Source: Candolleomyces eurysporus
Lineage: Eukaryota > Basidiomycota > Agaricomycetes > Agaricales > Psathyrellaceae
Reading direction: 5' to 3'
NCBI GenBank assembly: GCA_027579435.1
Contig: JANBPK010000813.1
Coordinates: 62,001 to 126,000, forward strand
DNA length: 64,000 nucleotides
Positions 672 through 62,382 of this stretch are shown piece after piece (positions within the stretch are counted from its first letter, which is position 1; each line of letters begins with the position of its first letter). The notes beneath the pieces were generated by a model. It was not told the origin of the DNA and ran no database searches. It saw only the letters and a program-made list of their open reading frames with translations. The translations under genes were made by a program, and so were the position numbers.

Positions 672-1061
672 TCAAAGATCACTGAAATCAATCGAAGGAT
701 ATTGAGAACACAGCCACTCAAAACCAGAACGGGCTGCAAGATCTTTGGCTCTCTGCTTCTTCGGCGCAGATGATCTTCCGACTTTCAGTACAACGTTAGT
801 ACCGCCTTGGCCATCGACTGGCCGTGGATAAACGATTAGCCCAAAAACGCATGGACTAAACTCGACGACACTCACGTCTGGCTTCGGCAGACCATGGCTC
901 AGCTCTGTTGCTTGTCATCCAAACCTCTACGATGGGCCGAACGGTGCCCCCGAAGACCCTTTGAGCGGCGTTGTTGAACCTCATGCATGATCCTGTTACC
1001 GGTGAAGTAAGAAATAGATGAGCTTTAGTCAAGCAGCAATGGTGACCTCACCATCAGACAT
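672..1061 (-). CDS. dsRBD-fold miniprotein, copy 1 (90 aa)
   Basis: Spliced from exons 1061-1052, 992-876 and 817-672; the introns start GTGAGG and GTGAGT and end CAG. The product begins MSDGSCMRFNNAAQRVFG, continues with PIVEVW and PWSAEARR, and ends with SAPKKQRAKDLAARSGFEWL followed by SQYPSIDFSDL. This order matches a double-stranded RNA-binding domain: helix 1 with N and Q, three strands, then helix 2 introduced by the KK..AK basic patch that contacts the dsRNA backbone in known dsRBDs. The protein is almost nothing but this domain: no signal peptide, membrane segment or second domain. The start is the ATG of the 10-nt first exon shared with the seven other copies in the window. A TATA-like box lies 94 bp upstream. 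The fold assignment is by motif only; binding to RNA is inferred. Confidence 0.8.
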
Positions 1062-2761
1062 GATGCCTCTATGCAAGTAGATAGTTGGGATTAGGATCTT
1101 GGTGTGTGAAATGGAGAGGTGTGGGCATGAAAACTCGAGTACAATCTCCCGGCTTTATATAACGGGGTCACGGTTAAAGATTTGACGCTGTCTCCATCTT
1201 GCGTCCCTAACTGACATGAGTGCGCTTGTTCTCTGGGCTCGGTGGGTCGAGATCTTTGCCGAAAGGGGGAGAAACGAGACAAGTCAGTCCCAGGCGAATG
1301 TCGGAGGACTTAATACGTAGACTCCGATGCGTAGGCGCGCTCGCACTGTCAACAAGGAAGAGTTTATTCACAAGCGAAAACATCGCGTGTGCATTTGATT
1401 ACTTCAACTTGTCATACACTGATACTCCTCGTGTTTCCAAACGACTCTCTCTGTTCCAATGAATCGATGCAGCTTTCCTTATACCTAGCTAGTGCAAGAT
1501 CCTCATTTTCCTCGGTGATTCCTACCAAGTTACGGTATTAAGGTACGGAGTAGGTGATTCATTGGCGGCCTGAGGTTTCCGCGACTATTCAAATTTATAT
1601 CCGCTATCTGATTAACCACTAGTATTTCCTATAGTAGTAGAGCGCCACGAGGAAGATCTGGCGACCCGAGTACATCTGAGGATCAACAGTTGCTACAGTT
1701 CAAACCCTGCGAACGCTGCATGCGCCATGAATGGCTTCTTACAGTTAACATGCCTGAAGAGAAGCGATATTGTGGCATCGAGCCACATGAAGTATATGTG
1801 GTTCTACGATGGAGGATCGTAACAAGGTAAGTGACTTGGGTATGACATGTGTTGCTGGTTCACGTTAACGGCATTCTCCGCAAATCCTTGTCAAATATCC
1901 CCGCAGTATGATGGCTTCTTGGAATGGAGGACTTCGGAACCTCGTGTCAACGGGTTCTAGCAGTAGTTGACTCCGCGCGAATCGTCCCAGTAAAACTCAT
2001 ATATGCGAGTCTGGGGGAGCTTTTGTGACTGCTTCGCTCACATGCAAAGCGATTAGAAGCTGTGACCACAGCTGCCTCAATGATAGAGCGTTATTGAAAG
2101 GAAGATGCGAATTAGGTCCAGAGAATGTACGCGGTTGTCGAAGACGCGAAACAGAAGGCTTGCCTTATGCTTCCCTAGTAGCCCCCGTTCATGAATCAAA
2201 ATCAACCTTGCGTGCTTAAAAAAGTCCATATGCTCCAGATAGCAATAATAGACTCTGAAGTAGCCATGAAGTGGGAATCCCATATTGAGCACGCATCATG
2301 GCAATTCGCAGTGCCAGGAGAAGCAAAGGTCGGCGCTCAATGAGAGTTCTAGATGCCAGCCTGAGCGGAGCTGAGAACTGGCCGACAGAGCATTACGGAG
2401 GGGGCCTTGATTAAGATATTTCTGCTTGCGATATCATCGCACTGTGATCAGATCGAGGCGGCGGGCGCTCCGCGTCTAGCGCTCAGGGTGTGGCTGTGTG
2501 ATGCCTGGAAGCTTCCCAAACAAACAGTGGCAAAGCTTCACACGCTCCCTTTGTGTTGGCGCTCTCACCTTCACCTGGCTCCCACCTCGACGCCCACGTT
2601 CAAGACGGGCAGCGACCACACCAACTCACAAAACCGTCCTCGACTCGGATAATATCCAAGTCTTGCTACAGTCTTGATACCCCAATCCTAATCCTACACC
2701 GCACCATTAGCAATACACTCCGTATTCTACTTCCTCTTATCCCCCGTATAATCAATAAAGC
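1062..2761. other. intergenic with one possible coding exon
   Basis: Mostly non-coding. A frame at about 1646-1825 (+) reads through with a CERC motif and ends at a good GTAAGT donor; a downstream acceptor at about 1906 leads to a short tail ending near 1968. I do not recognise the product and see no clear start, so this may be a gene fragment. The last 200 bp before 2762 are the C/T-rich promoter and leader of the Prp4 gene. Confidence 0.3.
1154..1162 (-). promoter_or_regulatory. TATA box of dsRBD miniprotein copy 1
   Basis: TTATATAAA on the minus strand, about 94 bp before the ATG at 1061. Good match to a fungal TATA element at a distance shared with copy 3. Confidence 0.55.
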
Positions 2762-6248
<3,487 letters not shown>

Positions 6249-6610
6249 GAGATCGTGACTTGGAGGAGCCGCCTGGAGCCTTGGCCTGCGTAGATACGAT
6301 TTCATCCCAATTTCTTATATATCTGAGACTCCTTGCCCCGTTAAAATGAGTAGTGAGCTTCCACTATCCCACCGTATTTTATTTTGTGACGAGGTCCGAG
6401 GACTTGAACCGAACCGAGGACATTAACGTTACATGAATAATATAACAGGATATTATACAATATGATATGGTAGGTTCAACTTGAAACTGCCCTTCGGTGG
6501 CTCGGGAGTGGCGAATAAACGTATTGCTCACGAAGAAGGGGCAAAAAACAATACAAATGTGTTTTCTGGAAAATGGCACATACTAGGCAAACACGTGTTC
6601 CGATCTCTCG
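6249..6610. other. 3' flank of the Prp4 gene
   Basis: A/T-rich sequence downstream of the kinase stop codon; no gene or repeat recognised. Confidence 0.4.
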
Positions 6611-6619
6611 GGGACTGAT

Positions 6620-7290
6620 ATCATGGTAAGCGTTCAAATTTCGAAGTTCTCGGGCAAGCGCCTGACTTTTGAGCAGCTGCTTCTTGATCTCGGAGTAAGC
6701 GCCAAATGCAGCAGTCAGTACCCGGTCAAGTTCTCAACGCGCGAGCCCTACAGCTTTGAGGATGCTCCTAACATCAAAACGGGCGCTTAAGCTGAGTTTA
6801 ACAAACACTTCCTCCGTGTATAGCACCCAGATAGGTGTTACTAGCGCCAATGTTTTGAGCAACCGCTTCATTGCTTCGTGAGCAATGCTAAAGTTCTGAG
6901 CCGCCACCCGGTCTCAGGGTAAGCGCCAATGATGGTGCTGTTGGACTGAGCGTCGACGCTTCCGGGATTATCGATGTCCCGGTAAGCGCTCAAATCTTCG
7001 GTAAGCATCGAGTCAAAAACCATAGAGCGGCTGTTTAAATCCACGAGAAACCTTTGAACGTCAGGGTAGGCGCCAAACTTGTCAACAGCACCACTTCGTC
7101 TAGGTATAGCGCTCGAGCTGATGCCGGAGTCAGCGCCAAAGCTTCTAACAGCCCCTTCACCCAGGTATGTTGCCTAAGTTGACCTGAGCTGATGTCATAT
7201 TCAGCGCTAAGGCTTTGAACATCCGCTCCGTCGGCCAAAGACCTGAGTCTCCATCCGGTCTCTGGGTAGGCGCTAGCGATCCCGCTGGAT
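6620..7290. repeat. degenerate ~65-bp tandem repeat tract
   Basis: The motif GTAAGCGCCAA and variants (GTAGGCGCCAA, TCAGCGCTAA, GTAAGCGCTCAAA) recur near 6629, 6692, 6783, 6843, 6920, 6982, 7066, 7131, 7200 and 7266, about 60-90 bp apart. Between them similar phrases recur, such as CTTTGAACGTC, AACAGCCCCTTCACCCAGG and GAGCTGATG. This looks like an old, strongly diverged minisatellite between the Prp4 gene and the second dsRBD miniprotein gene. No open frame runs through it. Confidence 0.55.
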
Positions 7291-7353
7291 TAGGGGTCGG
7301 ACCTTCGAGCAACCGTTGGGCTTCTCGCATTCCGGCGCGTACCCCGCAACTAC

Positions 7354-7360
7354 TTTAAAA
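7354..7360 (+). promoter_or_regulatory. TATA-like box of dsRBD miniprotein copy 2
   Basis: TTTAAAA about 60 bp upstream of the ATG at 7418, followed by a C/T-rich leader. Confidence 0.4.
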
Positions 7361-7417
7361 AGCGGTCGTGCATGCCCAGCTCCTCGTTTTCTCCTTCTCT
7401 TACCTTTCTATCAGATA

Positions 7418-7811
7418 ATGGCTGACGGTACTTACCCACTTCCATATTGAAGGGTCCCCCATGCTCACTCTTCCTCTATGATAGGCTCCCGCATGAGGTT
7501 CAACAATGCTACTCAGCGACTGTTTGGTGACCTCGTCAGAGCCGTCATCATAGTTTGGGAGACGAAGGACTGGGAAACACCCTGGTCTGCCGAAGCTAGA
7601 AGTGAGAGCTACGCGACTACTAGTGTGCGCTAGTCCGTCTGCTAACAATACCTCCTTGTCACCAGTCGTTAGCAACGACGACAACAAGCTCGTCTGGATA
7701 GTAGGCCAAGGATCAGCATCACAGAAGAAGCAAGCAAAAGATATGGCCGCCAACTCTGCCTACCAATGGCTGGTTATCCAGTATCCGTCCATTGACCTCA
7801 TTAATGTGTGA
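7418..7811 (+). CDS. dsRBD-fold miniprotein, copy 2 (90 aa)
   Basis: Exons 7418-7427 (10 nt), 7485-7601 (117 nt) and 7666-7811 (146 nt). Starts MADGSRMRFNNATQRLFG; the middle strand reads PWSAEARS and the third strand VWIVGQGS. The C-terminal helix SQKKQAKDMAANSAYQWL keeps the KK.AK patch, and the end is QYPSIDLINV. It lies directly downstream of the degenerate tandem-repeat tract and reads away from it. Sequence is close to copy 4 in the third exon. All splice sites are GT-AG and no stop interrupts the frame. Confidence 0.8.
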
Positions 7812-9131: not shown

Positions 9132-9508
9132 TCAAACACTAGTGAGGTCAACCGCAGGGTACTGAGTGCGGAGCCAATGATATCCTTCGCGCGCGGCTGC
9201 GTTCTTCGCATCTCTCTTTCCAGGGCCAGACCCTCGACCCACACTCAATATAACGCCGTCGTTGCGTACAACTAGCTCAAGTTGGTCAATGTATCTACGA
9301 CACTGTCGTAATATGCATGCTCACCTCTGGCTTCAGCAGACCAAGGGCTTGTACGGTCGTTCGTCTGCCAGGCAAGGACGACAGGCGTCGCAAGTTCATT
9401 GAAAACCTTCTGAGCCGCGTTGTTGAATATCATACATGCATCTGTTGGCAAAACATCATTCAGAAATCCAGGAGAAATGGCGCAGCTTGTGGACATACGT
9501 TTTGACAT
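9132..9508 (-). CDS. dsRBD-fold miniprotein, copy 3 (88 aa)
   Basis: Exons 9508-9499 (10 nt), 9441-9325 (117 nt) and 9271-9132 (140 nt). The protein opens MSKHACMIFNNAAQKVF, then PVVLAWQTND and PWSAEAR; the third exon encodes GVILSVGRGSGPGKRDAKNAAA and ends TQYPAVDLTSV. The helix-2 basic patch is changed from KK.AK to GKR.AK, so one of the usual backbone-contact lysines is replaced. In a straight reading the C-terminal half appears lost; only correct splicing at the TAG acceptor next to 9272 restores it. Otherwise intact. Confidence 0.75.
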
Positions 9509-10489: not shown

Positions 10490-11830
10490 TCTATCAGTAA
10501 AAGGGAATATGATTGTGAGAGGTAAAGAGGAGGCGTCCTGGAAGCTCGAGATCAAGGTCAAGGTCGAGAGGTCCCCGTCCGCCACCTGTTCCAGTAGACC
10601 GGAATGAGGACGTGGAGGAGGAAGGCAATTAAGTATTGGATAGCTTCTGGCTCCAAACTGCCAACAGGAAAAAAGGGACAGGTCACCGCCGCGTCTGAGC
10701 GTCTCACTGCCTTCCTCCACAGCCAGACCTCTAGCGGTCGAGACTCGCCATTAGGGTATGGTCATTCATTCTCCGGACATGGCCGACGTTGATGGACGTC
10801 GTCGACAACACGGATATTATGAAGTTTGAGAGGATATTTGAGCGTCGGATGGTTGTGTTTAGTCCTTGAGAGTTGGAGGTGGGTGTTCGTTTACTCAGAT
10901 ATGGCCTGGTTCTTTCTGACTTCGCGTTCTTGGTCGACCCTCATTCATTCTGTTTTGTATGTAGTGTCATTCCACTCTCTTGTGGTTCATGCAATCTCGT
11001 GTAGCATGATCCTTCGAGAAGTTGCCAAGCGGCTTGGGCGAAAAATCACACTGAATATCAAGGGTGTAGGAGCTTATGCCCTAGTTGTTCTTGGCAGTGA
11101 GCTGAAGGAGGAATATGATGCCTGTGGATATTTGTCCTGTCAATAATTTGGTGACTCGTAGATTGCCTTCATACAGTTGCGCTGGTGTTTTGCGCATGTT
11201 ATACGCTTAAATACCCCTGGCTTTCTCCTCTTTTGTCTTCCCCTCGAGCTGGCCCTGTTGTCTGTCGTCTCCCATTTCAAGCTGTGTACAATATGCCGTT
11301 ACAAAAAGGTGAATTTGCTCCAGTTGTGTTCTTTGAGTTTGCGTCGGATGTCAGCGAGAAGGAAGCTACGCCGTGCCTTGCTGGTCGGTTTTGCAAGGCT
11401 CCGGAGATTAGTGAGCGTCCGTACATCCTCCACTTTTGTCCTCGACTTTCTCCGTCTCCCTTCCTTGCTTCCATTGCTCCGTTCTGATTAAACCCTCTCT
11501 ACAATTGCTCCCAATCTCCACTTCCCAGGTCTGTCCAAAGATCGAGCGCGTCAAATTCGACGAAAAGTATATTGGCTCGCTGGGAACCTCTTCCTCTCTG
11601 CTTTGGACGACGGCGTCTCGGCCACACACGAGTTGGCCGCCCGTCGGAGTGCAGGGCTCAGTAAAGGTAAACGATTATGGATGGTTCTGGGAGGTTGTAG
11701 TGCGGAGATGAAGGAGGAGGTTAAAGTACTTACAAGTTTGGTGGACTACTGGAAAAGCGTTTGACGCTGGATCCTACTAAAAAAATGCGCCTAGGGAGGG
11801 GTCGGTGTATCCTGTTATTTGGGGATGACT
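10490..11830 (+). pseudogene. decayed partial duplicate of the Prp4 kinase gene
   Basis: Collinear with the intact gene at 2762-6248. About 10505-10790 matches the RS-rich end of exon 1, intron 1 and the start of exon 2; 10795-10875 jumps to exon 5 (matching 5030-5105); 11006-11150 matches exon 6, with the reading MILREVAKRLGRK against [13 protein letters not shown]; 11310-11415 matches exon 7 (FASDVSEKEATPCLAGRF); 11525-11830 matches the C-terminal half of exon 8. The glycine loop, VAIK and the HAD loop are deleted or frame-broken, and two large internal deletions are present. Intron sequence is retained, so the copy came from DNA, not from a retrotransposed mRNA. Confidence 0.9.
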
Positions 11831-17400: not shown

Positions 17401-17409
17401 GGACCGATA

Positions 17410-18473: not shown

Positions 18474-18876
18474 ATGTCGCAAGGTGCAGTCATGCCTTAT
18501 TCCACTTATTCTCCAACTCTATCTTATTATTCCATGGTAGTAACAGTATATTGTATGAAGTTCAACAACGCCGGACAGCGAGTATTCGGTAACAACGTGC
18601 GGCCCGTCGTCCTCGCCTGGGAGACAGACGACAGAGAGGCAACTTGGTGCGCCGAAGCTAGACGTAAGGGTTATCAGCTTCCGGTCCACACATCTCTTCC
18701 CGCTCACCATCTCTCCGCACAAAGTCGTTGGCCAAGACAAGAATGGCCGAGTCGTGGTTGTGACAGTGGGTCAAGCATCTGCGTCAAAGAAGAAGAAGGC
18801 GAAGGGTATGGCAGCGACCCTTGGTTATCAATGGCTGCGTTCAAACTATCCGTCCATCGACCTTAACAACGTTTGA
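18474..18876 (+). CDS. dsRBD-fold miniprotein, copy 4 (92 aa)
   Basis: Exons 18474-18483 (10 nt), 18547-18663 (117 nt) and 18725-18876 (152 nt, longest of the family). Reads MSQVYCMKFNNAGQRVFG, then RPVVLAWETDD and TWCAEARL, then an extended third-strand hairpin with GRVVVVTVGQ. Helix 2 is SASKKKKAKGMAATLGYQWL with four consecutive lysines, the most basic version in the window. The tail is SNYPSIDLNNV. The tryptophan-alanine pair of the middle strand is preceded by T instead of the usual P. Confidence 0.8.
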
Positions 18877-20381: not shown

Positions 20382-22099
20382 GTTGAGCTGGGCGCCTGTT
20401 GCGATAATATTCGTTGGCACCAACGCAAGGCTCAAAGCAGCTATCTCGGATAAATGCGCGCAGATTTACAAGCGATTTGGTAAATCTGGTCAACCGAGCT
20501 CAGCATATAGAGAAACCTGACTTACAGGAATTGCTTGGGCGCGTCTCAACCTAACCCACTGTTGACAATTTTTATCGACCGACCAAGGAGCTTGGTGCAG
20601 AGTAAGGCCTTGAATACAGAGTATATACGGATTTACCGTACCTCGAAGGTAAAGGTCTGCAGTGGACCAGAATACGACCAGTCGCCACAGGGTGAGGATG
20701 GGATGAGAGCGTTCATTGTCGTCGCGGTCGAGAGTGGTCGAGAATCAAGGACCATCGAACGAAATTCCCACCGCGTCGGAAGCGGTCCTCAGCGGGCCTA
20801 CCCTCCCGGAGTCGCTCATTCGATTCCCGCAGGAGGGAACATTTTCTCAGACGTTGTTACTCTACAGGCATGAAGAATCACAGGTCAGGGGAAATCACTC
20901 CTATCATTCCACACATTTTCTTTGGAACGTTGAGCGGGCTGGAAGTTCATCATCGTGCTGCCCCTGCAATGATGGCCAGGCTCGTTTGCGGTGCATTCCC
21001 GATTTAGCACCTGTACAGCTCATATTATATGGATTGTAACAGCTTTGAGTGGCTTTCAGGGATAGCTAGCACTGTATCAATCAGGTAAACGAGCTTTCAA
21101 AAGCAGAGCATCCAGAACACCCCTAGTTGATCTCCTTACAGCACGTTGCTACATTTCCCCCAATGGCGATGTGGGGAGTGACCCGACTCTGAGCGGAGAA
21201 ACGGTTCACTCGCCCTATTGTCTCTCGCTTCGCTTAGCTGACTCCATCGCCCGTTCAGGACCCTTTATTTCCTTACGTGGATGGATTTTTTTTCTTGTGG
21301 ACCGTTCTCGAATATTCGTAGGATATTGCGATTGCCTGGCGAGGTCCGATTGGACTCGCACTTTGTTTGTACACCGAGTGTGTACACACGAACCGGAACA
21401 TCTTATATACCCTTGAGACGGATTTTAGGGACATCTTACCTTTCCCCCTCCATCGATTCGGACTCAAGCAGTCATTTCGTATTCGCATTCCTTTCGATAA
21501 AATTCTTCTTACCCCTCGTCGTCATCAATTTGTCTACATTCAGAACTATCCGAATACACTCGTTTTGCCCTCACACCTCGAGCAATCAGGTTTCGGACCA
21601 TCGTTGTCTCGAGCCCTCCTCTTACCTCTTTATCTTTCCCTTTCAAATCGAACTCTCTCTCACAGCGAGTGCCATTGTTCCGGATGACATAGACTCCTGT
21701 ACGTAGGAAAGTGCAGTGGAGCCGCGGATCCAAGCACGATATTACCAACAAGGCTTGCCTCACTTCGCTAGAGGATGCAAGGATATCCTATCATCTAGTC
21801 TGACCTCTCATATGTCAGATATGCATATTTCTTTTATTTATTGCTTATACTGCTCCACTTTACGGTACCACACTTCATTCGATGCTCTCATCGATCGTCT
21901 CTATTTTCCATTTAGGGTTCTCTCTGTCAGCCGATCACCTACTATATATTCTCGCCCGCCTTAGTTAGCCAGCCCTCAGATTCTTTCCATTTATCTGAGG
22001 GTGCGTACGTTTCTTTCCATCTCGCCAATACGGTTTTGCTTCCATGTAGATACAGTCTTATTTATCATCTACCAGGCCTCTCCATAACCGTCACGCCTT
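20382..22099. other. intergenic
   Basis: No gene supported. From about 21.2 to 22.0 kb the plus strand is rich in T and C with several phased open frames, but no protein motif or splice structure is convincing. Confidence 0.35.
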
Positions 22100-22720
22100 C
22101 TCCTTTCGACATCATAATCTCCAACTGGGCCGCTTCCTTCTCTGTCCTTTCTCAACTGAAAGAGAGGAACACGAACACGGTCGAGCTTAATGCCAGCAGC
22201 CGTCCCAAAGTCTCGGAACAGATTTCTAGCCTTTCTGGACCCGGTCGTTCGTCTCCGTTCCATTGTAGTCCGTGATATAGAAAGGATCCAGAGCTACCTC
22301 TCCCGGCGTTTCGCTCGTGATGATGACCTGGTGTCGGGAGTGTGAAAGGGCTAGTGACTCATAGTTTGACTCGACGCAGAGTCTCCTCGTGATCCTGGCT
22401 CCAGCGAGAGTGGGTCATATTGAGGAAGGATTCATCGAGCGCGAATACAAAATCAAGTGTTGCATTCGGGTGTTTAATTTCAAGATAAAGCTGTCTTATA
22501 ATCAAGCCATGTTCTCGAATTGAAGTTCCCGAATTACCAGTGAGAAGAACTCCACTATAAATGAGGGTCAAATAGTGGCCGTAGCTCCATTGTCGTATGA
22601 GAGTGTAAAAGTCCCATCCTTTATCCCTAAGTATCTTGAGAGATAGGTCCTCAATCAGTTTACGATAGGCTTTGCTAGAAGGTCACATTTTAGGAACCGA
22701 TTGTGAGAGTCCCCAGCTGA
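22100..22720 (-). pseudogene. dead copy of the one-TM membrane protein family
   Basis: Reads collinearly with the genes at 23715 and 24983 across several frames: GTFTLSYDNGATATI, then a GTSI segment and HPNATLDFVFALDESF, then a shift by one base to LYESLALSHSRHQVIITSE and TDYNG, then a TM-like stretch LGRLLALSSTVFVFLSF. At least one frameshift (around 22362) and in-frame stops break it. The intact relatives are downstream on the opposite strand. Confidence 0.8.
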
Positions 22721-23070
22721 GAGGAATGAGCATTTCAGTGATTCAATGATCTCATTCGTACTAGTACTGAGGGTGTCAGAGGCAGGTAGCTCTGGTCCGA
22801 CCGGAGTTGCTCGCACAGTTGCACGTGGTATTTTGCCGTGGCCCTCGATACGAGCGAACTCATGGGGGACTCAGGCTGAAGAATCTGCGCACCCGCAAGC
22901 GTGGACAATGCACTTTGAATGCTGAACTCCAAAATCTGCACCGTGACCGTGTATCTCAAACTCATTAGAGGTTGTCATATTTGATGAGATGTGATAACAT
23001 CGTTCTGGAGACAAGAAACACAACGACTCTAAGCGAAGTCGTATTTCCTCGCATCCTGTTGACAAAAATG
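22639..23070 (-). repeat. block related to 44985-45655 (cysteine-rich ORF remnant)
   Basis: Shares the phrases GATAGGTCCTC, CGATAGGCTTTGCTAGAA and the minus-strand coding remnant ending CIVHACGCADSSA with the 45-kb block, where the match reads CIFHACGCTDSSA. The 45-kb copy carries about 200 bp between the first two phrases that are absent here. No intact frame remains. Confidence 0.65.
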
Positions 23071-33779: not shown

Positions 33780-36393
33780 ATGGCACCAACGACCTCTCTC
33801 AGCAAAACTTTCTCCACACTCCTTGCCGCCATCCTGTTTTCAACCATTCTTTCGGTCGTCAAGGCAGCTCCATGGCCACATTACGCTAGGCACTCGACAC
33901 ACAGGGTGCGTCACATTGGAAGGGGCCTTCAGGTCGCGGCGTACCACCCCAAGACTACCTTCAAGGTGCAGTGCTCAATGTTCGCTCGTCGCCGGGTTGA
34001 TCTTTAATTGTTGTTCTATTTACAGACCTTCGGCACTGAGGGCGCTCTCGTCGGCTCCGGCAATTCGCTCACAAAGTCGAACTCTAGTCTCCGAGATTCC
34101 GCTATGTCCTATGTTACTTCTCTCGGTTTCAAGGAGGAGAACCTTGCGTGGAAGTCGGGCTTCACAGACGGAGAGACTGGGTTTGCGTATCTCAAGCAGG
34201 CGCATGTGAGTCTCTCTTGCCTTTCCCTTCTATTTTGGGTACCCAAACCCTCTCCCATGCAGAACGGTGTTCCCTTTGCCAATGCTGTCTGCAACATGGC
34301 TCTCACTGGCGGTCGCGTCGCCTCGTGGGGTTCATCGTTCGTGGACCTCTCGTCCGGTGAGTGGTCGCACTAGTCGATCTCCCCCATACAGGACTAATCA
34401 AGGCATATATATTCCAGCCAAAATTGCCGACTCTACTCCCACAGTTAGCTGGAGCTCCGTCCTTCCTCAGATTGAAGACCAACTGGATGCCAAGTACAAC
34501 AAACAGAACGCCACTCTCGAGTACTTCGTCAAGTCGGACGGCTCTGTTGCCTTGACTCATGTCATTCAGACCGAGAACAAGGAGACTGGTGCTTTCTTCG
34601 AAGCCTACATCGACGCCCACTCTGGCGAGCTCGTCAGTGTTACCGATTTCGTGTCTCATGCTACCGTATGTACACCTCTCTTGCTTCTTTAACTGCACAT
34701 CACCCTCATGGTTCCATTCATATATCATCATAACAGTACACCGTCCTCCCTGCGACCAAACAAACCTTCGTCGACGGCCTCGAGACCCTGACAGACCCAG
34801 AAGACCTCGAAGCCTCACCCAACGGCTGGCACAGCATCGGTGCCGGCGCCGAAACAACCACCACCTCAGGCAACAACGTCGTCGCCTTCCGCGGCCAGAC
34901 CGTCGTCGAAGAAACCTCCGCCACCCTCAACTTCAACGCTGAATACGACGATACCAAGAATCCTACTGATCCTCAGAACATCGAGGGCGCGGTGACGAAT
35001 GCTTTCTATATCATCAACACGATGCATGATGTCACCTACCGGTATGGCTTTACGGAGAGTGCGTTCAACTTCCAGCAGAACAATAATGGGAAGGGTGGAC
35101 TTGGGAGGGATAGGGTTGAGATCTCGGTTCAAGATGCCAGTGGGACGAACAACGCGAATTTCGCGACGCCTCCTGAGTACGTGTTCCTTCGTCGAACTTT
35201 ATCTTCTTTGATTCTGAGATACTGATGAAACGCTTCACAGAGGTCAACCAGGTCAATGCCGTATGTTCATCTGGACCTTGACTGATGTGCCCCGCGATGG
35301 TACGATGGAGAACGATATCATCATCCACGAGTTCACTCATGGTGTTACCAACCGGATGACCGGCGGTGGAACTGGGAGGTGCTTGCAAACTCTCGAGTCT
35401 GGGGGACTTGGTGAAGGGTGGGGTGATGCTATGGCCGAGTACGTTTCTCATTCTTTCGCTTTACTCCACTCTATTACCCTCGTTTCCCGTCTTTTCTTCA
35501 TATATCCACCTTCCTTACCCTCTGATTCTTTTGCTCTGCTGGCACCTTCCTCCTTTGCCTTGATTCATTTCTACCCCAGAATTTGACGGCTGACATCTAT
35601 CTCTCTTTGATGACAGCTGGATGGCACAAACCTCCGCAGACGTTACTGACTTCGTCCTGGGCTCATATGTTACAAATAACCCAGAAGGTCTCCGAAGGTT
35701 CCCTTACTCCACCAGCGCGTATGTGTATCTCGTTTCGACACAACTGTCACCGATGTGCTCACAATCGGGCGATTTGATCCTAGCCAAACGAACCCACTCC
35801 GGTACTCTGACCTGCAACAATTCAGTGAAGTCCATGGTACGTTTTTCCTCTCGTCTTGGCATCAATCACCGTCCACCACCGGTTTCGTTCCGTTTCATCT
35901 TACCTCTCATCATTACACGGACTGAACAAGGACTTGATTAAATGATTGATTCCTTCATACAGATATCGGCCAAGTCTGGGCAAACGCCCTCCACAACGTC
36001 TACGCCGCACTCGTCGAGGCTCGCGGATTCAGTGCCGACAAGTTGACGAATCCCGATGGGACTGAAGGCAACGTGGTTTACATGAAGTTGTTCATTGCTT
36101 CACTGGCTGTTCAGCCTTGCAACCCTACTTGTACGTGTTCAGTCTACATCCCCACCTTCCCGTTGCCTGTCCTTTAGATCACCGTCTCCCTCACGACGTT
36201 TATCATACTGATCCACTTGATTGGTTCCTTCTCCACAGTCGTCCAAGCCCGCGACGCGTGGATACAAGCCGACCAGAACCTCTTCAACGGTGCGAATAGG
36301 TGCACGCTCTTCAAGGCCTTTGCGAGCAGGGGTCTTGGTTTGAATGCGGATGATACCTTCACGGATGATGAAACTGTTCCTGCGGAATGCTGA
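33780..36393 (+). CDS. fungalysin, secreted M36 metallopeptidase (607 aa precursor)
   Basis: Ten exons: 33780-33965, 34026-34205, 34263-34356, 34418-34665, 34737-35176, 35241-35438, 35617-35718, 35784-35836, 35963-36130, 36239-36393; exactly 608 codons. An N-terminal hydrophobic stretch ([20 protein letters not shown]) is the signal peptide. A propeptide (FTP type, with [13 protein letters not shown] and [16 protein letters not shown]) precedes the mature enzyme from about residue 240. The zinc site [11 protein letters not shown] supplies two histidines and the catalytic glutamate, and the E in [12 protein letters not shown] is the third ligand. [17 protein letters not shown] and the end DDETVPAEC are also family hallmarks. 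It digests extracellular protein such as elastin and collagen. All active-site residues are present. Confidence 0.96.
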
Positions 36394-38179: not shown

Positions 38180-38559
38180 CTAAGTCGAAACCTGGGAACT
38201 TTGTGTGCGGAGCCACTGGTACCCGAGGCTTGCAGCGAGGTCCTTGGCTCCTTGCTTGCTATACGCCGATTTCTGGGTAAACCTCCGTACCACATCTCCA
38301 TTTTTACGCACAACTGGAATATCGTTAGCTAACAGGGAAGGATTTCATCCACAACTGAATGCTCACGTCGAGCTTCGGCGATCCAAGGGTTGGCTGGGTC
38401 GTTCGTCTGCCATGCTAAAACCTTGGGCTTGGGGCTTTCTCCGTAAACTCTCTGTGCTTCGTTGTTAAACTTCTGGCACCACTCTGCGGCTCGAGAATGG
38501 GAAGTCAGTGTTGAGGCGAGACTGATAGCTAGTGAGGTCGAATACTCACCATCATTCAT
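38180..38559 (-). CDS. dsRBD-fold miniprotein, copy 5 (86 aa)
   Basis: Exons 38559-38550, 38483-38367 and 38313-38180. Starts MNDEWCQKFNNEAQRVYG; the first strand KPKVLAWQTNDP and PWIAEARL follow, then VRKNGDVVRRFTQ. Helix 2 is SAYSKQGAKDLAASLGYQWL: one of the paired lysines is replaced (SKQ.AK). The usual YPSIDL tail is changed to SSQVST, so this copy has drifted at the C-terminus. TATAAAAG lies about 50 bp upstream of the ATG. Confidence 0.78.
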
Positions 38560-38607: not shown

Positions 38608-38615
38608 CTTTTATA
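38608..38615 (-). promoter_or_regulatory. TATA box of dsRBD miniprotein copy 5
   Basis: TATAAAAG on the minus strand, about 50 bp from the ATG at 38559. Confidence 0.6.
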
Positions 38616-40956
38616 CCTCAGATCGCATGCCGGCGGCCTCTGTACCGTGATTCAACCCTGAGGATCGATCGAAAGATGTTGCATTGTCACCAGTGCGACG
38701 GGTCTACCCCGATGCAGCTTCGAGATGTCAGTTGTTGTTTGGACTTGACAGATTCTCATTGTCCGACTTTGCGCTCGAAGTTGCCACCGATAGATTCAAA
38801 TCAGAAAAAGGGGTAATCAGAGACCATGGACCACAATCTGTGCATAGGGGAAAAATGAACGTGATGTAAGTAATTTCAAGCGACTCATCTTCGCTCTCAA
38901 TGATGACTCCATGAAACACGTTCCTTTGGCCTACTGCGCCCTGCCTCAATTCCGTAGGCTTGAGATTACTTCCTGCGTTTCTTGGTCTTTCGCTGCGGCT
39001 CTCTCCCCTTCAATTGAGCCATTTGGCTTTGGACACGCTTCAACTTATTTCTGAAGCCATCGGGATATCAAACGCCGCGATAACCATGAGGCTCACAGAT
39101 AAAGCATGGTGATTGGAGAAGATGTGGTTCGGTGGAAATATGGACACAGGGCAGTGGGACGGAGCTCGATATATGCGATAGCCATTCCGATATGACACGA
39201 TGATGAACACATGTCCGGTACGCCCGTCGTCCCCTGGCGCAGTGAGGCGAGCTCGTTTGGTTCGCGGGATTTTTCCCCGAGATTAATGACTTATTGTGCC
39301 CGAGATGAATTATTCTACATCTAGCTGTCTCCGTGTTTCCTGTATGAGTCGCGGAGTATTGAGATCTCGCTCAGCAAGTCAGATCGTTCTCAAACATAGA
39401 TTCTGGCAAGTATACAGATTTTTGGGTATTCTTTGGTAGAAAATCAACAAAAGGTCGGCTACTTGGACTTACCTCTTCACAGAGACCCGTGACGGGCCCA
39501 TCTATAAGTCTCGAAGCGAAACCTCGAGGCTTCTCTGCGCAATTCACCGAGAGTCCCTTACGAGTCTGTCCGCAGTCGGCGGGCCTCGTTTACATTACAA
39601 TCATGGGGATCTAAGGTTCGTACCTCTCTGTCTTTCTCACTTCGTTGAATACTCATGGGCGTCTCATGTCTTCACCCCACCCCATTCATTTCAAATGAAA
39701 CGCTACCCGGCGAACCTATTGATTCCCGTTCCTCCAACAAACCTACTCAAACCAGGACTCTGTCGGGGGATGCTGGCCCTCACCACTTCTTCTGCCCACC
39801 CGATCCTCGCGCTTGCACAGTATACAACTTTGGGTGATTTCACCTAAATTTCGCACTAATCGTTGTTAACATAATGGCTTCCTTTGCCGGCGGCTCGATG
39901 GGCGCTTCAGACTCGCGCTTGAGACGCTAATCACTCCGATCGCATATCGGACGTGGCAGGCTGGTTTTCGATGGCGTGAATAGCGCAGATACAGCCGTGC
40001 GGACGTAGAGCCCGACCCTCGAATCGCGTCTAAATTGATAGGAGGATCGAACACGATCGGTGCAGCTCCGTTTGGACTTTACCAGACGCCCTGATCAAAC
40101 TATCGCCTCTTGAACAATGACATGGTAAAGGCGGTTAAGGAGACATCGGCAAAAATCCTTTCTATCACACAGTTGAGCCATCTAGACGAGGAGATACATT
40201 GGTGGTAGCCATCTTGTGTGCGCGTTAAAGCTGGAGACGCAGGCAGGACAAGCGCCCGGGCGATAAGGTCTGGGATCAATGCCAAGATAAGATACCGCGC
40301 GCGGATCCGCCTCCTCGGTGCTCCTCCTCGGTGCTCCTCGCTCAAATTTCAGTAAAATGCATTTCGAACCCTTGCTCCTTCAACAGAAGTTTAGCCTGGC
40401 CAGCAACTCGTTGGCCTCAAAACTTCAGATGACAAATCCCTGTCTCCCCACAACCGGGTGATTCCGAAACAATGAATTCACCTAATCTTTATGAAAGGTA
40501 AATAACGCAATTGAATTCAAGGGTGTCAAGGGCCAGATCGACTTCGAGCCCGCAGAGCACAGTTAGGTGATTTCGCATTTGAGCAGCAGTGCTTGAGGCC
40601 ATCGGTTCGGTCGAAACGTGCAAGACGCGTAAGCGTATCCGTGTTTCAATGAGGAAGCGCAGTCTGAGGACTGATTGTTCACGTGAAAATTCCGCCCGGG
40701 TTGATAGTGGAGGCACTCACCAGAAATCCTCATAACGAACTGACCCACCCCCGTAATCACTACCCCGGCACCAAGTTCAACCTAGAAGCATATATTGGCA
40801 CCATCACGCCGGTACGAGCCACGACTGTCATGGGGACCTCGCTTTGCAGTTCGGTGACAATGGTTTTCACCTCTTGGAATTGTTTAATTTTATCTGATTT
40901 CTGAGAAGAGCCACTCGTCAGCCAAAGAATAGCACGAGGTGAGCCCAGGAGAGGAC
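38616..40956. other. intergenic
   Basis: No gene, repeat or RNA recognised; frames are short and unconserved. Confidence 0.35.
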
Positions 40957-43684: not shown

Positions 43685-44072
43685 ATGGTTGACAGTAAGG
43701 ACCCGTTGTGCGGAATTTCCCATTCTCCCAGTACTTACTGCGTCTCTATCATCCACAGGATTTTGTGCAAAATTTAACAATGCCACACAGCGAGTGTTCA
43801 GCGGAACCATCTCGCCCGTCGTCTACGTCTGGGAAACGAATGACCCAGTCAACCCTTGGTCCGCTGAGGCAAGGCGTAGGTATCTCCTTGAGTATTGCAT
43901 CCTTCCCTGTTTGCTAAGATCTCATATCATAGTTCTCAAAGGCAATGATGTAATTGCCAAGTTTCCGCAGGCATCGGCGCCGAAGCGACAGATGGCGAAG
44001 GAGCTTGCTGCGAACGCAGGGTACGAGTGGCTTCTCGCCCACTACTCAGATATTGATCTAATCAACGTTTGA
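43685..44072 (+). CDS. dsRBD-fold miniprotein, copy 6 (88 aa)
   Basis: Exons 43685-43694, 43759-43875 and 43933-44072. MVDRFCAKFNNATQRVFSG, SPVVYVWETNDP and PWSAEARL lead to NDVIAKFPQ and SAPKRQMAKELAANAGYEWL; tail HYSDIDLINV. Basic patch is KR.AK. Exon 2 is close to copies 7 and 8 (PVVYVWETNDP in all three), which suggests a recent sub-branch. Confidence 0.82.
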
Positions 44073-44595: not shown

Positions 44596-44876
44596 TGCGA
44601 GTGCATTCGAAACGGAAAGATACGTGACATTTGATCATCATAACAATGGCAGAAGACTTCGCACCAAGAGAAAATTTGAGCTCGCGCTCAACTCGCGCTC
44701 GAGTTAGAGTTTCTCGGGGCAGTCATTACCTGATAATTCCGAAAATGACGCTGTCTCCCCGATCCACTCCTTAAATCTGTGGAAGGATCTCACTGCACAA
44801 ATACGATTCGTTGTATGCATGTGTTTGTATTGCGTGGGAATGATGCGACACTGAATTGAAGTATTCACTGCTATGA
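44596..44876 (+). repeat. direct repeat, left copy (~285 bp)
   Basis: Matches 46199-46485 in the same orientation, from GAGTGCATTC through ACAATGGCAGA, CGCTCGAGTTAG, TTTCTCGGGGCAG, GTCTCCCCGATCC, GTGGAAGGATC and CACTGCT, with scattered substitutions. Confidence 0.75.
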
Positions 44877-44984: not shown

Positions 44985-45655
44985 TTGAAAGATAGGTCCT
45001 CGATCTTATCATGTCATATCATACTAGATCAGTTCTTTCCAAATTTGCCCTTTCTATTTTTTTTTGTTCCTGCTTTGACCTCTGTGCGAATCAGAGCAAT
45101 AACAGCAGGCTCGCCACAATTTTCCTGGTATCTGATTGTCTGTCTCAAAAGTAGGGGCTTTAAACGGATAAGCTCGAAGGCCGATTGATCGTTTTTTTNC
45201 TTGCACGCGATAGGCTTTGCTAGAAAATCACATTTTTGGGATACGATCGTGAGATGAGTCCCAATCAAGAGGGATGAGCAAATCAATAAGCCAGTGACCC
45301 GTAGTAAGGTTGTCGGAGGTCAGTAGCCTTGGCCCAATCGGGGTTGCTAGCACAGTCGCACGTCGCATCTTGCCGTGGCCCTCGAGCGAACTCATGGGCG
45401 AGCTCACGCTGAAGAGTCTGTGCACCCACAAGCATGGAAAATGCACTTTTGATTCTGAGCTGCACAATCTGTTGAGGCATGATAACATTGTTCCAGAGCC
45501 TCGTATTCACGAAGATGATGGCAGTTCGCGTACCAATCACCCCAAGCACATTCCTCAACCCAATTACCCTGCCCGACTCCGACCTCAGCAAACACTCCAA
45601 CCGCTGAGATACAAAGACTTGTAATCACCAGAGCGAGTGACAGCGTCAAGTGAGA
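44985..45655 (-). pseudogene. cysteine-rich secreted-type protein remnant
   Basis: Minus-strand frame 45649-45404 opens with a signal-peptide-like stretch (TLSLALVITSLCISAVGVFA) and then has nine-plus cysteines, including ECAWGDWYANCHHL, EQCYHASTDC and CIFHACGCTDSSA. The codon where a start is expected is TTG, not ATG, and the frame stops at the end of the CGC motif; a second frame with CDCASNPDW continues 5'-3' behind it. It is most simply a gene that has lost its start, unless a small upstream exon supplies one. A worse copy is at 22639-23070. Confidence 0.5.
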
Positions 45656-46198: not shown

Positions 46199-46485
46199 AC
46201 CTAGTGCATTCAGAACTGAGAGACACTTTAGACTTGATTACCATGACAATGGCAGACGACCTCGCACCACGAGGAACTATGAGCTCGCACTCAACTCACG
46301 CTCGAGTTAGGGTTTCTCGGGGCAGACTTTACCTGACAACTCCGAAAACGACGCCGTCTCCCCGATCCGCTCCTTAATTCTGTGGAAGGATCCCACTGTA
46401 CAAATACGAGACGTTGAATATGCGTACGTTTGTATTGTGCGTAGGAATGAAGCGACACTTAGTTAAAATAGTCACTGCTGAGATT
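46199..46485 (+). repeat. direct repeat, right copy (~285 bp)
   Basis: Partner of 44596-44876. A shorter third copy of its last part (AATACAAGACGTTGAAT to TTCACTGCTGAG) follows at about 46514-46614, abutting the stop codon of the membrane protein gene. Confidence 0.7.
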
Positions 46486-50818: not shown

Positions 50819-50869
50819 AAAGCTAGAGAAGCCATTCTGCGCCGTAACACACAGAAGGGAACTTGAAGT

Positions 50870-52010: not shown

Positions 52011-52139
52011 GAACGAAACTTGCCCGATCAGTAGACCGGTAGCCGATCGGTCACGTTGACTGGTTACCCAATCAACGAGGCCACCTTGCAAAGACCAAAA
52101 CACCCGCTAAACACGCTGCACCCATTGTTAAAGCGTCAT

Positions 52140-52410
52140 AGCAGTATTGTGCTTGCCATCCTCAATAGGGGTCGGTTCGAAGCCGACAGCTTCCCGGGCG
52201 ATAATAACGCAGGGGTTGGGGGGGGCGTAGGCGTAGAAGTAGAATCCAATGTCGGCAATGATGGACATGACGTAAGTGGAGAAGAAGGATTCAGGGACGA
52301 GACAGGAAGATTGGATTTTTGGAGAGGGAAGCGACCTCCTCAGCGTCTGAATTGACGAATGGATCGCCAAAATGACTGACGGTGGCGAACGAGGTTTCAT
52401 TTTTGTTGTG
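52140..52410 (-). pseudogene. fragment duplicated from the 912-aa Ser/Pro-rich gene
   Basis: Plus-strand sequence GGGGTTGGGGGGGGCGTAGG and the following GACCTCCTCAGCGTCTGAAT with CGAATGGATCG line up with 57790-57950 inside the large gene (GGGGTTGGGGGTGTAGGCGT, GACCTCCTCAACTTCGGAAT, CGAAGGGATCG). The GTCGGTTCGAAGCC stretch matches GTCGACTCGAAGG at 57750. Frame is lost. A second case, after Prp4, of a worn copy of a neighbouring gene. Confidence 0.55.
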
Positions 52411-53415: not shown

Positions 53416-53794
53416 TTATGGGTATAGAGCGCAGAGCCACTGGTAGGCCGTATGTGCAGCAAGGTCCTTGGCTCGTTGCTTCTTAGTGGCGGATGACTGG
53501 GCAAACTTCGCGACAATGAGGTTGTTAGCATCGAGAACTAGAGTATGGCAGACGGGGTTAATAAACAGAGCGGTATGCGATGGACGGACAGGGTACTAAC
53601 GTCTGGCCTCGGCGCGCCACGGACTGGCTGGGTCGTTTGTCTCCCAAACGTAGACGACGGGAGTAATGTACCCTGTGAACACACGTTGAGTAATATTGTT
53701 GAATCTTGTGCAAGGGTCTAGTAGAAAGGCAAAGCAGAAGTCAGTACGAAGCAAACGAGGCCCCAAATACCACGAGATGCCTACCGTCAGTCAT
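53416..53794 (-). CDS. dsRBD-fold miniprotein, copy 7 (82 aa)
   Basis: Exons 53794-53785, 53717-53601 and 53537-53416. MTDDPCTRFNNITQRVFTG, TPVVYVWETNDP and PWRAEARL, then NNLIVAKFAQ and SATKKQRAKDLAAHTAYQWL. The protein ends at CALYP, lacking the SIDL.NV tail of other copies, which makes it the shortest. KK.AK patch intact. A weak GATAAAA box lies near 53844. Confidence 0.8.
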
Positions 53795-56700: not shown

Positions 56701-57368
56701 GAGAGAAATCGAGAGCCTGTGCTCTTGAGAAAGGGCTGAATCGAGAGGCCTCCAATATGCCAGTAAGTGTAACAAGTATCACGGTAACGCAAGGAGAGGG
56801 TCGGATTTGGTTGTTCAACGGTCGGGGTCCGCAAACGCGATTCCATCTGATCTGATGACGTCGGATGTATACTGCTATGTAACCGATCATCGGCCGAAAC
56901 TCGGCACGTGGATCACATTCTTGATTGAGGTAAAACGAGCGTTGGATGTGTATCTTATGTGTATGCAATAGGCCTCATGACCAAACTAATTTTCGTAAAA
57001 CTGTTAAAAGGAGGCCACAAAGGGGTATGTAGGGAGGGAGAGGAAAGCAGCATGAAACGAGGTCGTAAAAAGTCATAAAACAAAAACCAATCAAATCCAA
57101 GAAATCCAGAATATATATGCGATAAGCAATCCACCCGGGACGAATAGCACATAGGAAGATAGAAAGGTCGTCATATACGGGGCATTATGGATAGATAGAC
57201 GTTCATAAACGTCGATTAATAAAAGATAAGAATCGTGAAGCGGGAAACGCTTATTGGTGAATAGGAAGAGGGCAGGGGGGNAATGCATCAAAAAACACAA
57301 GGGGCACAAGTCTCAATTGAAATCACCAATGGCACCCTCCCCTGCACCCGCCCAATCAACACAGATAG
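53795..57368. other. intergenic
   Basis: 3.5 kb without a supportable gene. CCGAAATGAG with a preceding TTTGATA recurs at about 55119 and 56077, hinting at an old repeat, but I cannot extend it. An N at 57281 follows six G. Confidence 0.3.
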
Positions 57369-60107: not shown

Positions 60108-61979
60108 CCCTCGGGTCTGTTGCTACGCGTAAAACGAATTCAAGACGTTTGTTTCTTCGCGTTCTGGAAATTCCAGGTCAACCGTCAACGCTACGCTACC
60201 CACCCAAAAGGGGCAGACATGACACTACGTACATTAGCTTTGTCGTTTACAGGAGCGCTCACGACGACAGAGACAACGACCAAGCAACCAGCGCACGGAC
60301 GGACGAAGGGAAGGGACGAGGAGGAGGAGGACGGAAAACAAAAGGGGAGAAAGAGGAAGCCTCCAAACGGTGCCTTGCGTCTTGGCCTTTATAAACCGAC
60401 GTCAATCAACGTCCTCGGTCCACCCCGGTCCGCTCCCAAAACGCGTGTTGATTGAACACTCTATGCTTTTTTGGGGAAGACGCGTCGTGGAGCACTTAGG
60501 GGCTCGAGTCATCACGTGTACGTGTTTGGAAGAAGGGAACGAGGAGAACAAGGCTTGCTATCGTCCGTAACCAACAGCTTCTCGGTGCGTTGTACTTTGT
60601 GAATATCTCAAACTATTAATTGCCCCCAGCTTTGGGGGAGCCGACATCAGTCCCGCCGGCGGTATCACCGCTCCCGTGCCCCCAGGGCGGCCACGCGGAG
60701 TCTCTATATGGTACGAGAATGAGCTCTTAGCGTATAATACGCAGCTTCAGCCTCGTGTTATCAGACAGCCGTCGACACGCAGCAACGGTCATAGGACCGG
60801 CCTAGGCACTGCCTGTGCCACTGCCAGCGAACCTTCAACGCCACTTCGCGACATGAGCAACCATCGCGCAATCCAGAGTCCCTCAATTCGCCACCCCAAA
60901 GATGACTGTGCCGTGAGATGAAGGTACGGTGCATAACCCACCAGCACCGATATGGGTGATGGATCCTTGCCCCATCTTAGTTGGGACGCCTGAAACGCGC
61001 CCTGCGGGCCACAATATCATCAATGATCATGAGCCAATTCTCATACTTAACTATATTTTAAAAAANGCTCCGCGTAGCCGATATCATGATCGCTAAAACG
61101 GTAATGAACAACTCGGGACGGACTCGGGGCTCTCTCGTTCTTTCAGACAATTTGATTAATGCCGAAGTACGTTGTGCCGAAATTAATAGACATTCTAATG
61201 AGGTGGTTTGAAAATTTGCGGCGAAGACTTGATATTGTGCAGAGTTTCACCTTCACGGCTCCCTTCATGTTCTATCGTTTCCCATCATGATCACCGAATA
61301 TTTCCCAGGGGAGATTCGGTTGTACAACACGAGAGATCCGTTGGGACAGGAAAGCGCCGTATGTACACAGATTTCCATTTGATCATGGCTTCAAGGATGA
61401 AGCTTGAAGTCCGTTGCCAAAACAGAGTTACAAAGGTAATGGGAACGATTAGAGATTGAAGCTGATCAGTTGAAAGGTGTTTATCGTTAGAGCTTGTACG
61501 CAATTCTGCCCGCGAACCCAACTTACTGTTTACCTTTTCCCGAGTTTGATACCAGGACCACCGTGTGTTCGTTAGAGGTGAACGACAAACGACAACGAGG
61601 TGCAACGACTAGGTAACAATGAAAGGAAAGAAACGTAAGCGACAAACATGCCCATCTCGTGACAAGAAGACATTGTCCGAATTCGTTCGACTTGTCCCCG
61701 TAACGGAGGTTACCCTCGGTCATAACCAGGACCTCTTGTGACGAATTAGGATAAGTTAGTCCAGTATAGAAAATAAGGTCCAAGGCATCGGCGTGCGTTA
61801 ATACCAGCGTACCACGCCCCGACAACGGCGTGTTCGCTGATATTCGACAAGGCACTCTGCTGTCGGGAAGTTACGACTCTGTGCAAGCAAAGGGCATGGT
61901 CTATTCAAAGCATCCATTAACACGATATATTTCATCCATATATTAACAACTAGCGTTCAGCATTGCAGTCTCTTCTCTT
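60108..61979. other. intergenic with a promoter element
   Basis: Minus-strand TTTATAAAG at about 60385-60395 could serve the 912-aa gene. No other feature supported; N at 61066 after an A run. Confidence 0.35.
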
Positions 61980-62382
61980 TCACAGATTCGGGAACTGTGC
62001 AACGAGCCACAGGTATCCTGCTCTCGCAGCGAGGTCCTTCGCCGTGTGTCGGTTGGTCGCCGACGCCTGGTCAAACTTGACTAGGACATCTTCGCCGTGG
62101 AGGACTATAGCAATTCAAATGTCAGCCAACAACACTGGGAAGAGGGTTGCTCATCGAAGGTACACACGTCTTGCCTGTGCATGCCACGGGTTGGCGGGGT
62201 CATTTGTCTCCCAGACGTAGACGACGGGTTTGACGACGCCGCCATAAGCTCGTTGCGCAGTATTGTTGAAATTCGAGCATGAGCCTATCGATGAGAAACA
62301 GAGAGAGAACGAGTCAGTTTTCGCATTCAAGGAATCGTCGACAATCCCATCGACTAGGTGACGAATGCTCACCGTCGCACAT
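61980..62382 (-). CDS. dsRBD-fold miniprotein, copy 8 (83 aa)
   Basis: Exons 62382-62373, 62284-62168 and 62104-61980. MCDGSCSNFNNTAQRAYGG, KPVVYVWETNDP and PWHAQARL, then GEDVLVKFDQ and SATNRHTAKDLAARAGYLWL; tail AQFPNL. The lysine pair before AK is replaced (NRHTAK), and AEAR has become AQAR, so this copy departs most from the RNA-contact consensus while its frame and splice sites remain intact. No clear TATA box upstream. Confidence 0.78.

What the first reader, a model, noticed from the sequence alone, without database searches (positions are those of the whole stretch)
672..62382. Eight dispersed genes for stand-alone dsRBD-like miniproteins in 64 kb
Seen directly: eight separate loci (672-1061, 7418-7811, 9132-9508, 18474-18876, 38180-38559, 43685-44072, 53416-53794, 61980-62382) splice into 82-92-residue proteins sharing FNN..Q, PVVxxWxTND, PWxAEAR and AK.LAA. 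All eight frames are open after splicing despite wide divergence, which suggests purifying selection in a region otherwise full of decay. Known: the order helix-strand-strand-strand-helix with a lysine-rich helix-2 start is the dsRBD. Inferred: a locally expanded set of single-domain dsRNA-binding proteins could modulate RNA silencing, sense viral or transposon dsRNA, or dimerise with larger dsRBD proteins. The family's dispersal (both strands, 2-20 kb apart, non-tandem) is unusual.
Basis: partly seen in the sequence, partly recalled or inferred. Interest (0 to 1): 0.8.

Follow-up and report, generated by a model that had tools for sequence, protein, structure and literature searches.

The report
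Expanded family of mini dsRNA-binding proteins
A mushroom genome carries about fifty tiny genes, each encoding one bare double-stranded-RNA-binding domain and eight of them in this window, which look like working genes and may tune how the fungus handles double-stranded RNA.

Summary
All eight loci, at exactly the stated coordinates, splice (GT-AG) into open 82-92 aa proteins with a 10-nt exon 1, a 117-nt exon 2 and intron 2 right after ..A(E/Q)AR. The dsRBD reading is supported. AlphaFold2 gives helix-strand-strand-strand-helix (pLDDT 92.3 for P0001, which is window copy 2 apart from its first residues; 89.7 for a member of the other clade), with dsRBDs as best structural matches. Pfam dsrm is matched by 16 of 24 relatives, no other family by more than 2. 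The window is Candolleomyces eurysporus. A census found 61 places, 53 of them spliceable, on 23 contigs. They evolve under purifying selection (omega 0.31 for 53). 'Non-tandem dispersal' needs correcting: the eight lie in a 115-kb cluster of 18 spliceable copies whose order follows relatedness. Relatives bearing an organism name came only from Candolleomyces. Most likely these are single-domain dsRNA binders acting in trans on dsRNA processing. RNA binding and any RNAi role are inferred, not shown; the canonical GPxH loop is replaced by a conserved T-N-D.

The parts
672..1061 (-). copy 1, 90 aa; exons 1052-1061, 876-992, 672-817; best match of C. aberdarensis P0003 (83% id)
7418..7811 (+). copy 2, 90 aa; exons 7418-7427, 7485-7601, 7666-7811; same protein as P0001 (H1R20_g6077) apart from the first residues; P0001 was folded by AlphaFold2
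9132..9508 (-). copy 3, 88 aa; exons 9499-9508, 9325-9441, 9132-9271
18474..18876 (+). copy 4, 92 aa; exons 18474-18483, 18547-18663, 18725-18876
38180..38559 (-). copy 5, 86 aa; exons 38550-38559, 38367-38483, 38180-38313; shares the GCATGC-N9-TATAAA upstream element with members of the C1218 array
43685..44072 (+). copy 6, 88 aa; exons 43685-43694, 43759-43875, 43933-44072
53416..53794 (-). copy 7, 82 aa; exons 53785-53794, 53601-53717, 53416-53537; best match of C. aberdarensis P0006 (EST38_g7181, 90% id)
61980..62382 (-). copy 8, 83 aa; exons 62373-62382, 62168-62284, 61980-62104
38610..38630 (-). GCATGCGATCTGAGGTATAAA, TATA-type upstream element of copy 5 (begins 71 nt before the ATG)
   Evidence: position checked

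Best explanation
The eight loci are members of a lineage-expanded family of host genes, each encoding one bare dsRNA-binding domain (82-92 aa here, 77-101 aa over 53 models). The family grew at least partly by local duplication in one cluster, with copies elsewhere. SHOWN or strongly supported by computation: gene structure, dsRBD fold, single-domain architecture, purifying selection, about fifty spliceable copies, and close relatives in C. aberdarensis. INFERRED from conserved residues: the proteins bind dsRNA through the alpha-1 N-N/Q face and the basic start of alpha-2. INFERRED, weaker: having no enzyme or second domain, they act in trans, by shielding dsRNA from, or presenting it to, the fungus's own Dicer/RdRP/Argonaute machinery, much as Loqs2-, R2D2- or DRB7.2-type dsRBD proteins do.
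Against: No binding or expression data. The GPxH loop of classical RNA-binding dsRBDs is replaced by T-N-D (D/E at the third position in 44 of 53), and the middle lysine of KKxAK is mostly Q (35 of 53 N/Q; K/R in 14). Net charge is modest (median +2, range -2 to +10). No window copy passes Pfam's dsrm cut-off. Two of 10 C. aberdarensis proteins match only at 62 and 72%, and the 7 C. efflorescens ones compared at 59-72%, so one-to-one orthology is not general. None of the 23 contigs with spliceable copies carries a Piwi, RNase III or RdRP match; the one shared contig is C130, where a broken copy lies about 5.5 kb from an RNase III match.
Confidence: 0.6

Rival explanations
1. The fold is a dsRBD but is used for protein-protein contact (type-B dsRBD): the miniproteins dimerise with, and compete for, dsRBD proteins or Dicers, with little RNA binding of their own.
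Against: The alpha-2 basic positions that type-B domains lose (recalled) are almost invariant here (50 of 53 and 52 of 52).
Confidence: 0.2
2. Captured silencing suppressor of viral origin, kept and multiplied by the host.
For: Viruses do use dsRBD proteins; Foldseek against viral models lists RNase III and PKR-inhibitor proteins among its 50 rows, three rows at E below 0.001.
Against: Sequence scan of 2.9 million viral contigs with one peptide pattern: 13 stretches matched, none a relative by tblastn; RNA viruses may be thin in that collection. The 50 viral structure rows share 7-23% identity and are of mixed kinds. Two-intron genes with close relatives in C. aberdarensis.
Confidence: 0.06
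3. A dsRBD-like fold with a non-RNA task, for example binding and inhibiting an enzyme, as in the T7 Gp1.2 dGTPase inhibitor.
For: Gp1.2 chains are Foldseek ranks 8 and 10 in the PDB, and a phage dGTPase inhibitor is rank 4 among viral models.
Against: PDB ranks 1-7 are DGCR8 or Drosha-DGCR8 complex chains; Pfam and PDB sequence profiles point to dsRNA-binding proteins; the conserved polar residues sit where dsRBDs touch RNA (contact regions recalled).
Confidence: 0.07
4. Non-functional duplicates or transposon passengers that stay open only because they are short or young.
For: 8 of 61 places are broken or partial, and a few of the 53 models have lesions or odd junctions. In some pairs more than 1 kb of flank on each side is duplicated with the gene, close to the 1.5 kb that was compared. 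Three near-identical pairs have omega 1.02-1.04.
Against: omega far below 1; near-fixed intron positions; relatives at 79-90% in another species. A 1-kb flank matched 21 stretches, itself included, 18 of them on contigs that hold a family place, so it is not a high-copy repeat.
Confidence: 0.05

Closest known systems
dsRNA-binding domain family (Pfam PF00035 dsrm)
   Same: alpha-beta-beta-beta-alpha fold; basic residues at the start of helix 2 followed by A-K-x-x-A-A; PKR dsRBD2 shows the same K-Q-x-A-K pattern in the PDB alignment; 16 of 24 relatives match dsrm
   Different: 0 of 8 window copies over Pfam's cut-off; T-N-D instead of GPxH in the beta1-beta2 loop; the whole protein is one domain
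DGCR8 first dsRBD (1x47, 2yt4, 6v5b)
   Same: best structural match of P0001; its aligned loop, E-C-E-N-P-S-E-P-F, also lacks GPxH
   Different: part of a large Microprocessor protein; sequence identity 25-28%
DRB7.2 (Arabidopsis dsRBD protein)
   Same: interacts with DRB4 in sequestering dsRNA precursors processed by DCL3 (one passage read in PMC8138440); structures 8igd and 8z49 are among the matches; single dsRBD (recalled)
   Different: plant; longer, with the aligned part at residues 78-164 of its entries; no expansion of this size known to me (recalled)
Loqs2 (Aedes)
   Same: lineage-specific gene born by duplication of a dsRBD (abstract read, PMC10809485)
   Different: relaxed purifying selection with positive selection according to that abstract; here about fifty copies with omega near 0.3

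Membership tests
dsRBD (fold) | alpha-beta-beta-beta-alpha fold | tested here: met
   AF2 of P0001 H4-16 E20-28 E36-44 E50-59 H62-80, pLDDT 92.3; P0011, pLDDT 89.7, third strand split in two; dsRBD matches
dsRBD (Pfam dsrm) | score over the Pfam gathering cut-off | tested here: inconclusive
   0 of 8 window copies over cut-off, 4 of 8 matched below it; relatives 16 of 24 matched at E up to 1, best 5e-6; P0031 has PF00035 in its record
canonical RNA-binding (type A) dsRBD | region 3: basic KKxAK at the start of helix 2 | tested here: inconclusive
   positions -4 and 0 basic in 50 of 53 and 52 of 52, -3 basic in only 14 of 53 (N/Q in 35), extra basic at -5 in 40 of 53; register from the PKR alignment
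canonical RNA-binding (type A) dsRBD | region 2: GPxH loop between strands 1 and 2 | tested here: not met
   T in 53 of 53, then N in 48 and D in 44 of 53
canonical RNA-binding (type A) dsRBD | region 1: polar minor-groove face on helix 1 | tested here: inconclusive
   N-N and Q near-invariant (51, 52 and 49 of 53 N/Q), but which residues touch RNA is recalled, not tested
dsRNA-binding proteins | binds dsRNA | not testable with these tools
   needs EMSA or fluorescence polarisation
RNAi cofactor (Loqs/R2D2/DRB-like) | association with Dicer, or effect on small RNAs | not testable with these tools
   the same genome has Piwi, RNase III and RdRP genes; no contact shown

The most novel reading that the evidence does not exclude
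A diversified repertoire of about fifty one-domain dsRNA-binding proteins serves one mushroom genus as trans-acting dsRBDs for RNAi enzymes whose own dsRBD is not recognisable (no dsrm match on three of the four contigs that bear RNase III matches), each copy tuned to a different dsRNA source (viruses, transposons, inverted repeats) or developmental stage: an immune-repertoire-like expansion of RNA binders.
Probability: 0.15. Interest if true: 0.85.

Novelty: new variant of a known kind. Interest (0 to 1): 0.55.

Why it matters
A clade-wide survey of fungal Dicers reports that the largest class, 62.7% of the Dicer proteins found, lacks both a recognisable PAZ and a recognisable dsRBD, while noting that a divergent dsRBD may be present (passages of PMC12663654). 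A large set of stand-alone dsRBDs in a mushroom with Argonaute, RNase III and RdRP genes gives a directly testable candidate for dsRBDs supplied in trans. It also suggests that annotation can hide a large family of tiny multi-intron genes: 7 C. eurysporus protein records were listed against 53 spliceable models, though those searches are not exhaustive.

Tried and rejected
Transposon passenger: a 1-kb upstream flank of the C82 copy matched 21 stretches, itself included; 18 lie on contigs that hold a family place and 3 do not. Co-duplicated partner gene: 8 kb beside two dispersed copies share three DNA matches of 300-422 bp and no long gene that I could see; no protein-level comparison was made. 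Viral origin: sequence scan negative; viral fold matches are mixed, RNase III and PKR inhibitors among them. Wider taxonomic range: three profile searches gave organism names only from C. aberdarensis, C. eurysporus and C. efflorescens, plus unnamed environmental proteins. These searches need shared 5-residue words and annotated proteins, so absence elsewhere is not shown; no collection of fungal DNA beyond this genome was available to me. Positive selection: 0 of 177 pairs with dS 0.1-1.0 have omega above 1 (median 0.38); three closer pairs (dS 0.089-0.096, 23 changes each) sit at 1.02-1.04. IQ-TREE warned that the 53-row codon alignment has more parameters (114) than codons (88), so the omega values are approximate. 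NCBIfam: weak matches to one or two members only, best E 0.068. Promoter scan: a TATA-type word starts in -140..-45 of 29 of 53 copies (letter-shuffled mean 12.5, maximum 20 in 200 shuffles; 4 of 53 in an upstream control window); a looser set of words gave 38 of 53 against 4. A genome-wide search for the GCATGC-N9-TATAAA element was asked five times and never answered.

Splice-model caveat: the genome-wide scorer gave a small bonus to a 10-nt exon 1 and to GT(A/G) and GT(A/G)NG donors, so '46 of 53' is slightly favoured. The first run on the window copies had no bonus and gave 10 nt in 8 of 8. Eight places (C130_8039, C216_18126, C216_18404, C222_36521, C1007_12188, C1099_134627, C1099_138739, C1133_149454) were dropped before all counts on 53 models; the two C216 places are probably one gene. 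Several near-identical sets (C109/C1265, C82/C146, C329/C480, C1040/C1124/C548) may be alleles or split haplotypes; counting each set once gives 48. Several kept models have lesions or odd junctions (for example C520_30146, C1133_148114, C480_2112, C1220_76565, C1099_170212, C1099_139461). One listed C. eurysporus protein (P0004, 94% to its best match here) has no identical locus in the held assembly, so the census misses at least that one.

Literature: the listings (20 of 62 shown; 1; 0; 2; 8 of 14 shown; 1) show no report of such a family.
Full report
WHAT IS THERE. The window is bases 62001-126000 of a 203,174-bp contig (C1099) of a 65.9-Mb assembly in 1296 contigs. Copy 2 gives the same protein as P0001, C. 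eurysporus H1R20_g6077, apart from the first residues. P0001 lies on a contig listed as 203,174 bp, the same length. The organism is therefore Candolleomyces eurysporus, a psathyrellaceous mushroom. Each has a 10-nt exon 1, a 117-nt exon 2 and a third exon of 122-152 nt, with introns of 53-88 nt. Genome-wide, intron 1 is phase 1 in 52 of 53 and intron 2 in 51 of 53 models. No further copy lies inside the window.

HOW MANY. Searching the genome exon by exon with copies 6 and 1 gave 110 and 111 matches at E up to 10. With extra stretches fetched, these reduce to 61 places. 53 of the 61 give a spliced open frame of 77-101 aa and 8 are broken or partial. The 53 lie on 23 contigs and comprise 52 distinct proteins. 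18 are on C1099 between 55.9 and 170.6 kb, and 9 on C1218 between 45 and 93 kb. Two later searches with other members added only two distant matches (C673, C63; see last paragraph). The tool calls its counts lower bounds, and one listed C. eurysporus protein (P0004) has no identical locus here. Near-identical sets may be alleles; counting each once leaves 48.

RNA-BINDING SURFACE. The dsRBD contact regions named here (helix-1 face, beta1-beta2 loop, start of helix 2) are recalled, not tested. In the family, strongly conserved polar residues fall in these three places. Helix 1 has N-N (51 and 52 of 53 N/Q) and Q (49 of 53). The loop has T-N-D (53, 48 and 44 of 53). The start of helix 2 is basic at -4 (50 of 53) and at 0 (52 of 52), numbering the K of A-K as 0. 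The canonical GPxH loop is absent, and the -3 lysine is mostly Q (35 of 53). PKR dsRBD2 has K-Q-E-A-K in the printed alignment, and the DGCR8 loop aligned with the family also lacks GPxH. I read this as an RNA-binding dsRBD with a family-specific loop, at about 70%.

SELECTION. A one-ratio codon model gives omega 0.31 for 53 models (lnL -7765.1 against -8001.2 at omega 1), 0.24 for the 18 on C1099, 0.30 for the C1218 array and 0.18 for the window's eight (first run, where IQ-TREE warned of more parameters than codons). The deep trees are long, so the C1218 value and the pairwise values are the safer ones (177 pairs with dS 0.1-1.0, median 0.38, none above 1; three closer pairs at 1.02-1.04). 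Best matches of 8 of 10 C. aberdarensis proteins are at 79-90% identity, among them P0006 with copy 7 (90%) and P0003 with copy 1 (83%); the other two are at 62 and 72%, and 7 C. efflorescens proteins at 59-72%. The adjacent C. aberdarensis genes g7180 and g7181 (P0019, P0006; both on a 63,434-bp contig) match copies 5 (62%, tied with other members) and 7, which are near neighbours here.

HOW IT SPREAD. The protein tree has one well-supported split (100/99) into 26 and 27 rows, each holding C1099 copies. On C1099 one half holds the copies at 56-80 kb and 170 kb, the other those at 100-150 kb (90 columns, 19 of 49 inner forks open). Protein distance rises with genomic distance on C1099 (Mantel r 0.45, 0 of 5000 permutations), and weakly on C1218 (r 0.35, 230 of 5000). 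Some off-cluster clades have a C1099 copy as nearest neighbour (C1220 with C1099_59918, the C492 group with C1099_170212), which suggests the C1099 cluster as a source; the root is a midpoint, so this is inference. Copy 5 falls among the C1218 array on a long branch and shares with 6 of its 9 members a GCATGC-N9-TATAAA element at -63 to -71. The pattern occurs 7 times in 402,760 strand-bases of held sequence, as many as were found upstream of family genes (7 of 53). That sequence is enriched for family loci, so this is specificity within the held set only.

MECHANISM. The genome has Piwi (23), RNase III (7, on 4 contigs) and RdRP (30) exon matches. The dsrm search found only three places, on C375, C999 and C275, none on the C478, C130 or C1091 contigs of the RNase III matches. 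That search also missed every family member, so it cannot show that Dicers lack a dsRBD. No contig with a spliceable copy carries an RNAi-gene match; a broken copy on C130 lies about 5.5 kb from an RNase III match, which may be coincidence. A one-domain dsRBD can shield dsRNA, present it to an enzyme, or dimerise with other dsRBD proteins. DRB7.2 acts with DRB4 in sequestering dsRNA precursors of DCL3 (PMC8138440, one passage). Loqs2 arose by duplication of a dsRBD in Aedes (PMC10809485, abstract). I judge dsRNA binding likely (about 0.7) and a modulating role in RNAi or genome defence plausible (about 0.35). Expression, binding and partners are all unmeasured.

KNOWN OR NEW. The domain is known. 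A family of about fifty bare-dsRBD genes in one fungal genome was not seen in the listings, and a C. candolleanus genome paper has no occurrence of 'dsRNA', 'RNA-binding' or 'RNA interference' in its main text (find, PMC12786890). It is filed as a new variant of a known kind: a lineage-restricted (as far as searched), multi-copy, single-domain dsRBD family with a T-N-D loop.

RELATED. Two further loci (L079, L080; contigs C673, C63) encode a stretch with G-H-G-C-G-D-T-P-E-A-A-K-(R/Q)-A-A-A, weakly dsrm-like (E 0.042 for the L079 piece, no match for the L080 piece). L080 has further open frames upstream. It may be a second kind of dsRBD-like protein and a lead to the family's ancestor.

Noticed in passing
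window 10543-11828 (copy of parts of 3059-6248): Degenerate duplicate of the neighbouring protein kinase gene (Prp4-like by recall; Pkinase domain in Pfam), four DNA matches of 65-78% identity.
   Followed up: partly
window 34734-35583 (+): Fungalysin metallopeptidase (Peptidase_M36) gene, E 6e-46 and 4e-29 on two frames.
   Followed up: no
window 21168-21664: About 500 bp 84% identical to L078 5612-6110 (contig C548, some kilobases from a dispersed family copy): a repeat present near both.
   Followed up: no
window 44600-44872 / 46203-46479 and 22663-22938 / 45208-45471: Two pairs of 260-280-bp repeats, 83% and 75% identical, of unknown kind.
   Followed up: no
L079 and L080 (G000 contigs C673 and C63): A second dsRBD-like stretch, with extra open frames upstream in L080.
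   Followed up: partly
G000 contig C130, about 8.0-8.3 kb and 13.9-15.3 kb: A broken family copy about 5.5 kb from an RNase III (Dicer-like) match.
   Followed up: no
L077 5383-6917 (-) (contig C82): Frames resembling an unspecific peroxygenase (R-G-P-C-P-G motif, recalled) near a dispersed family copy.
   Followed up: no
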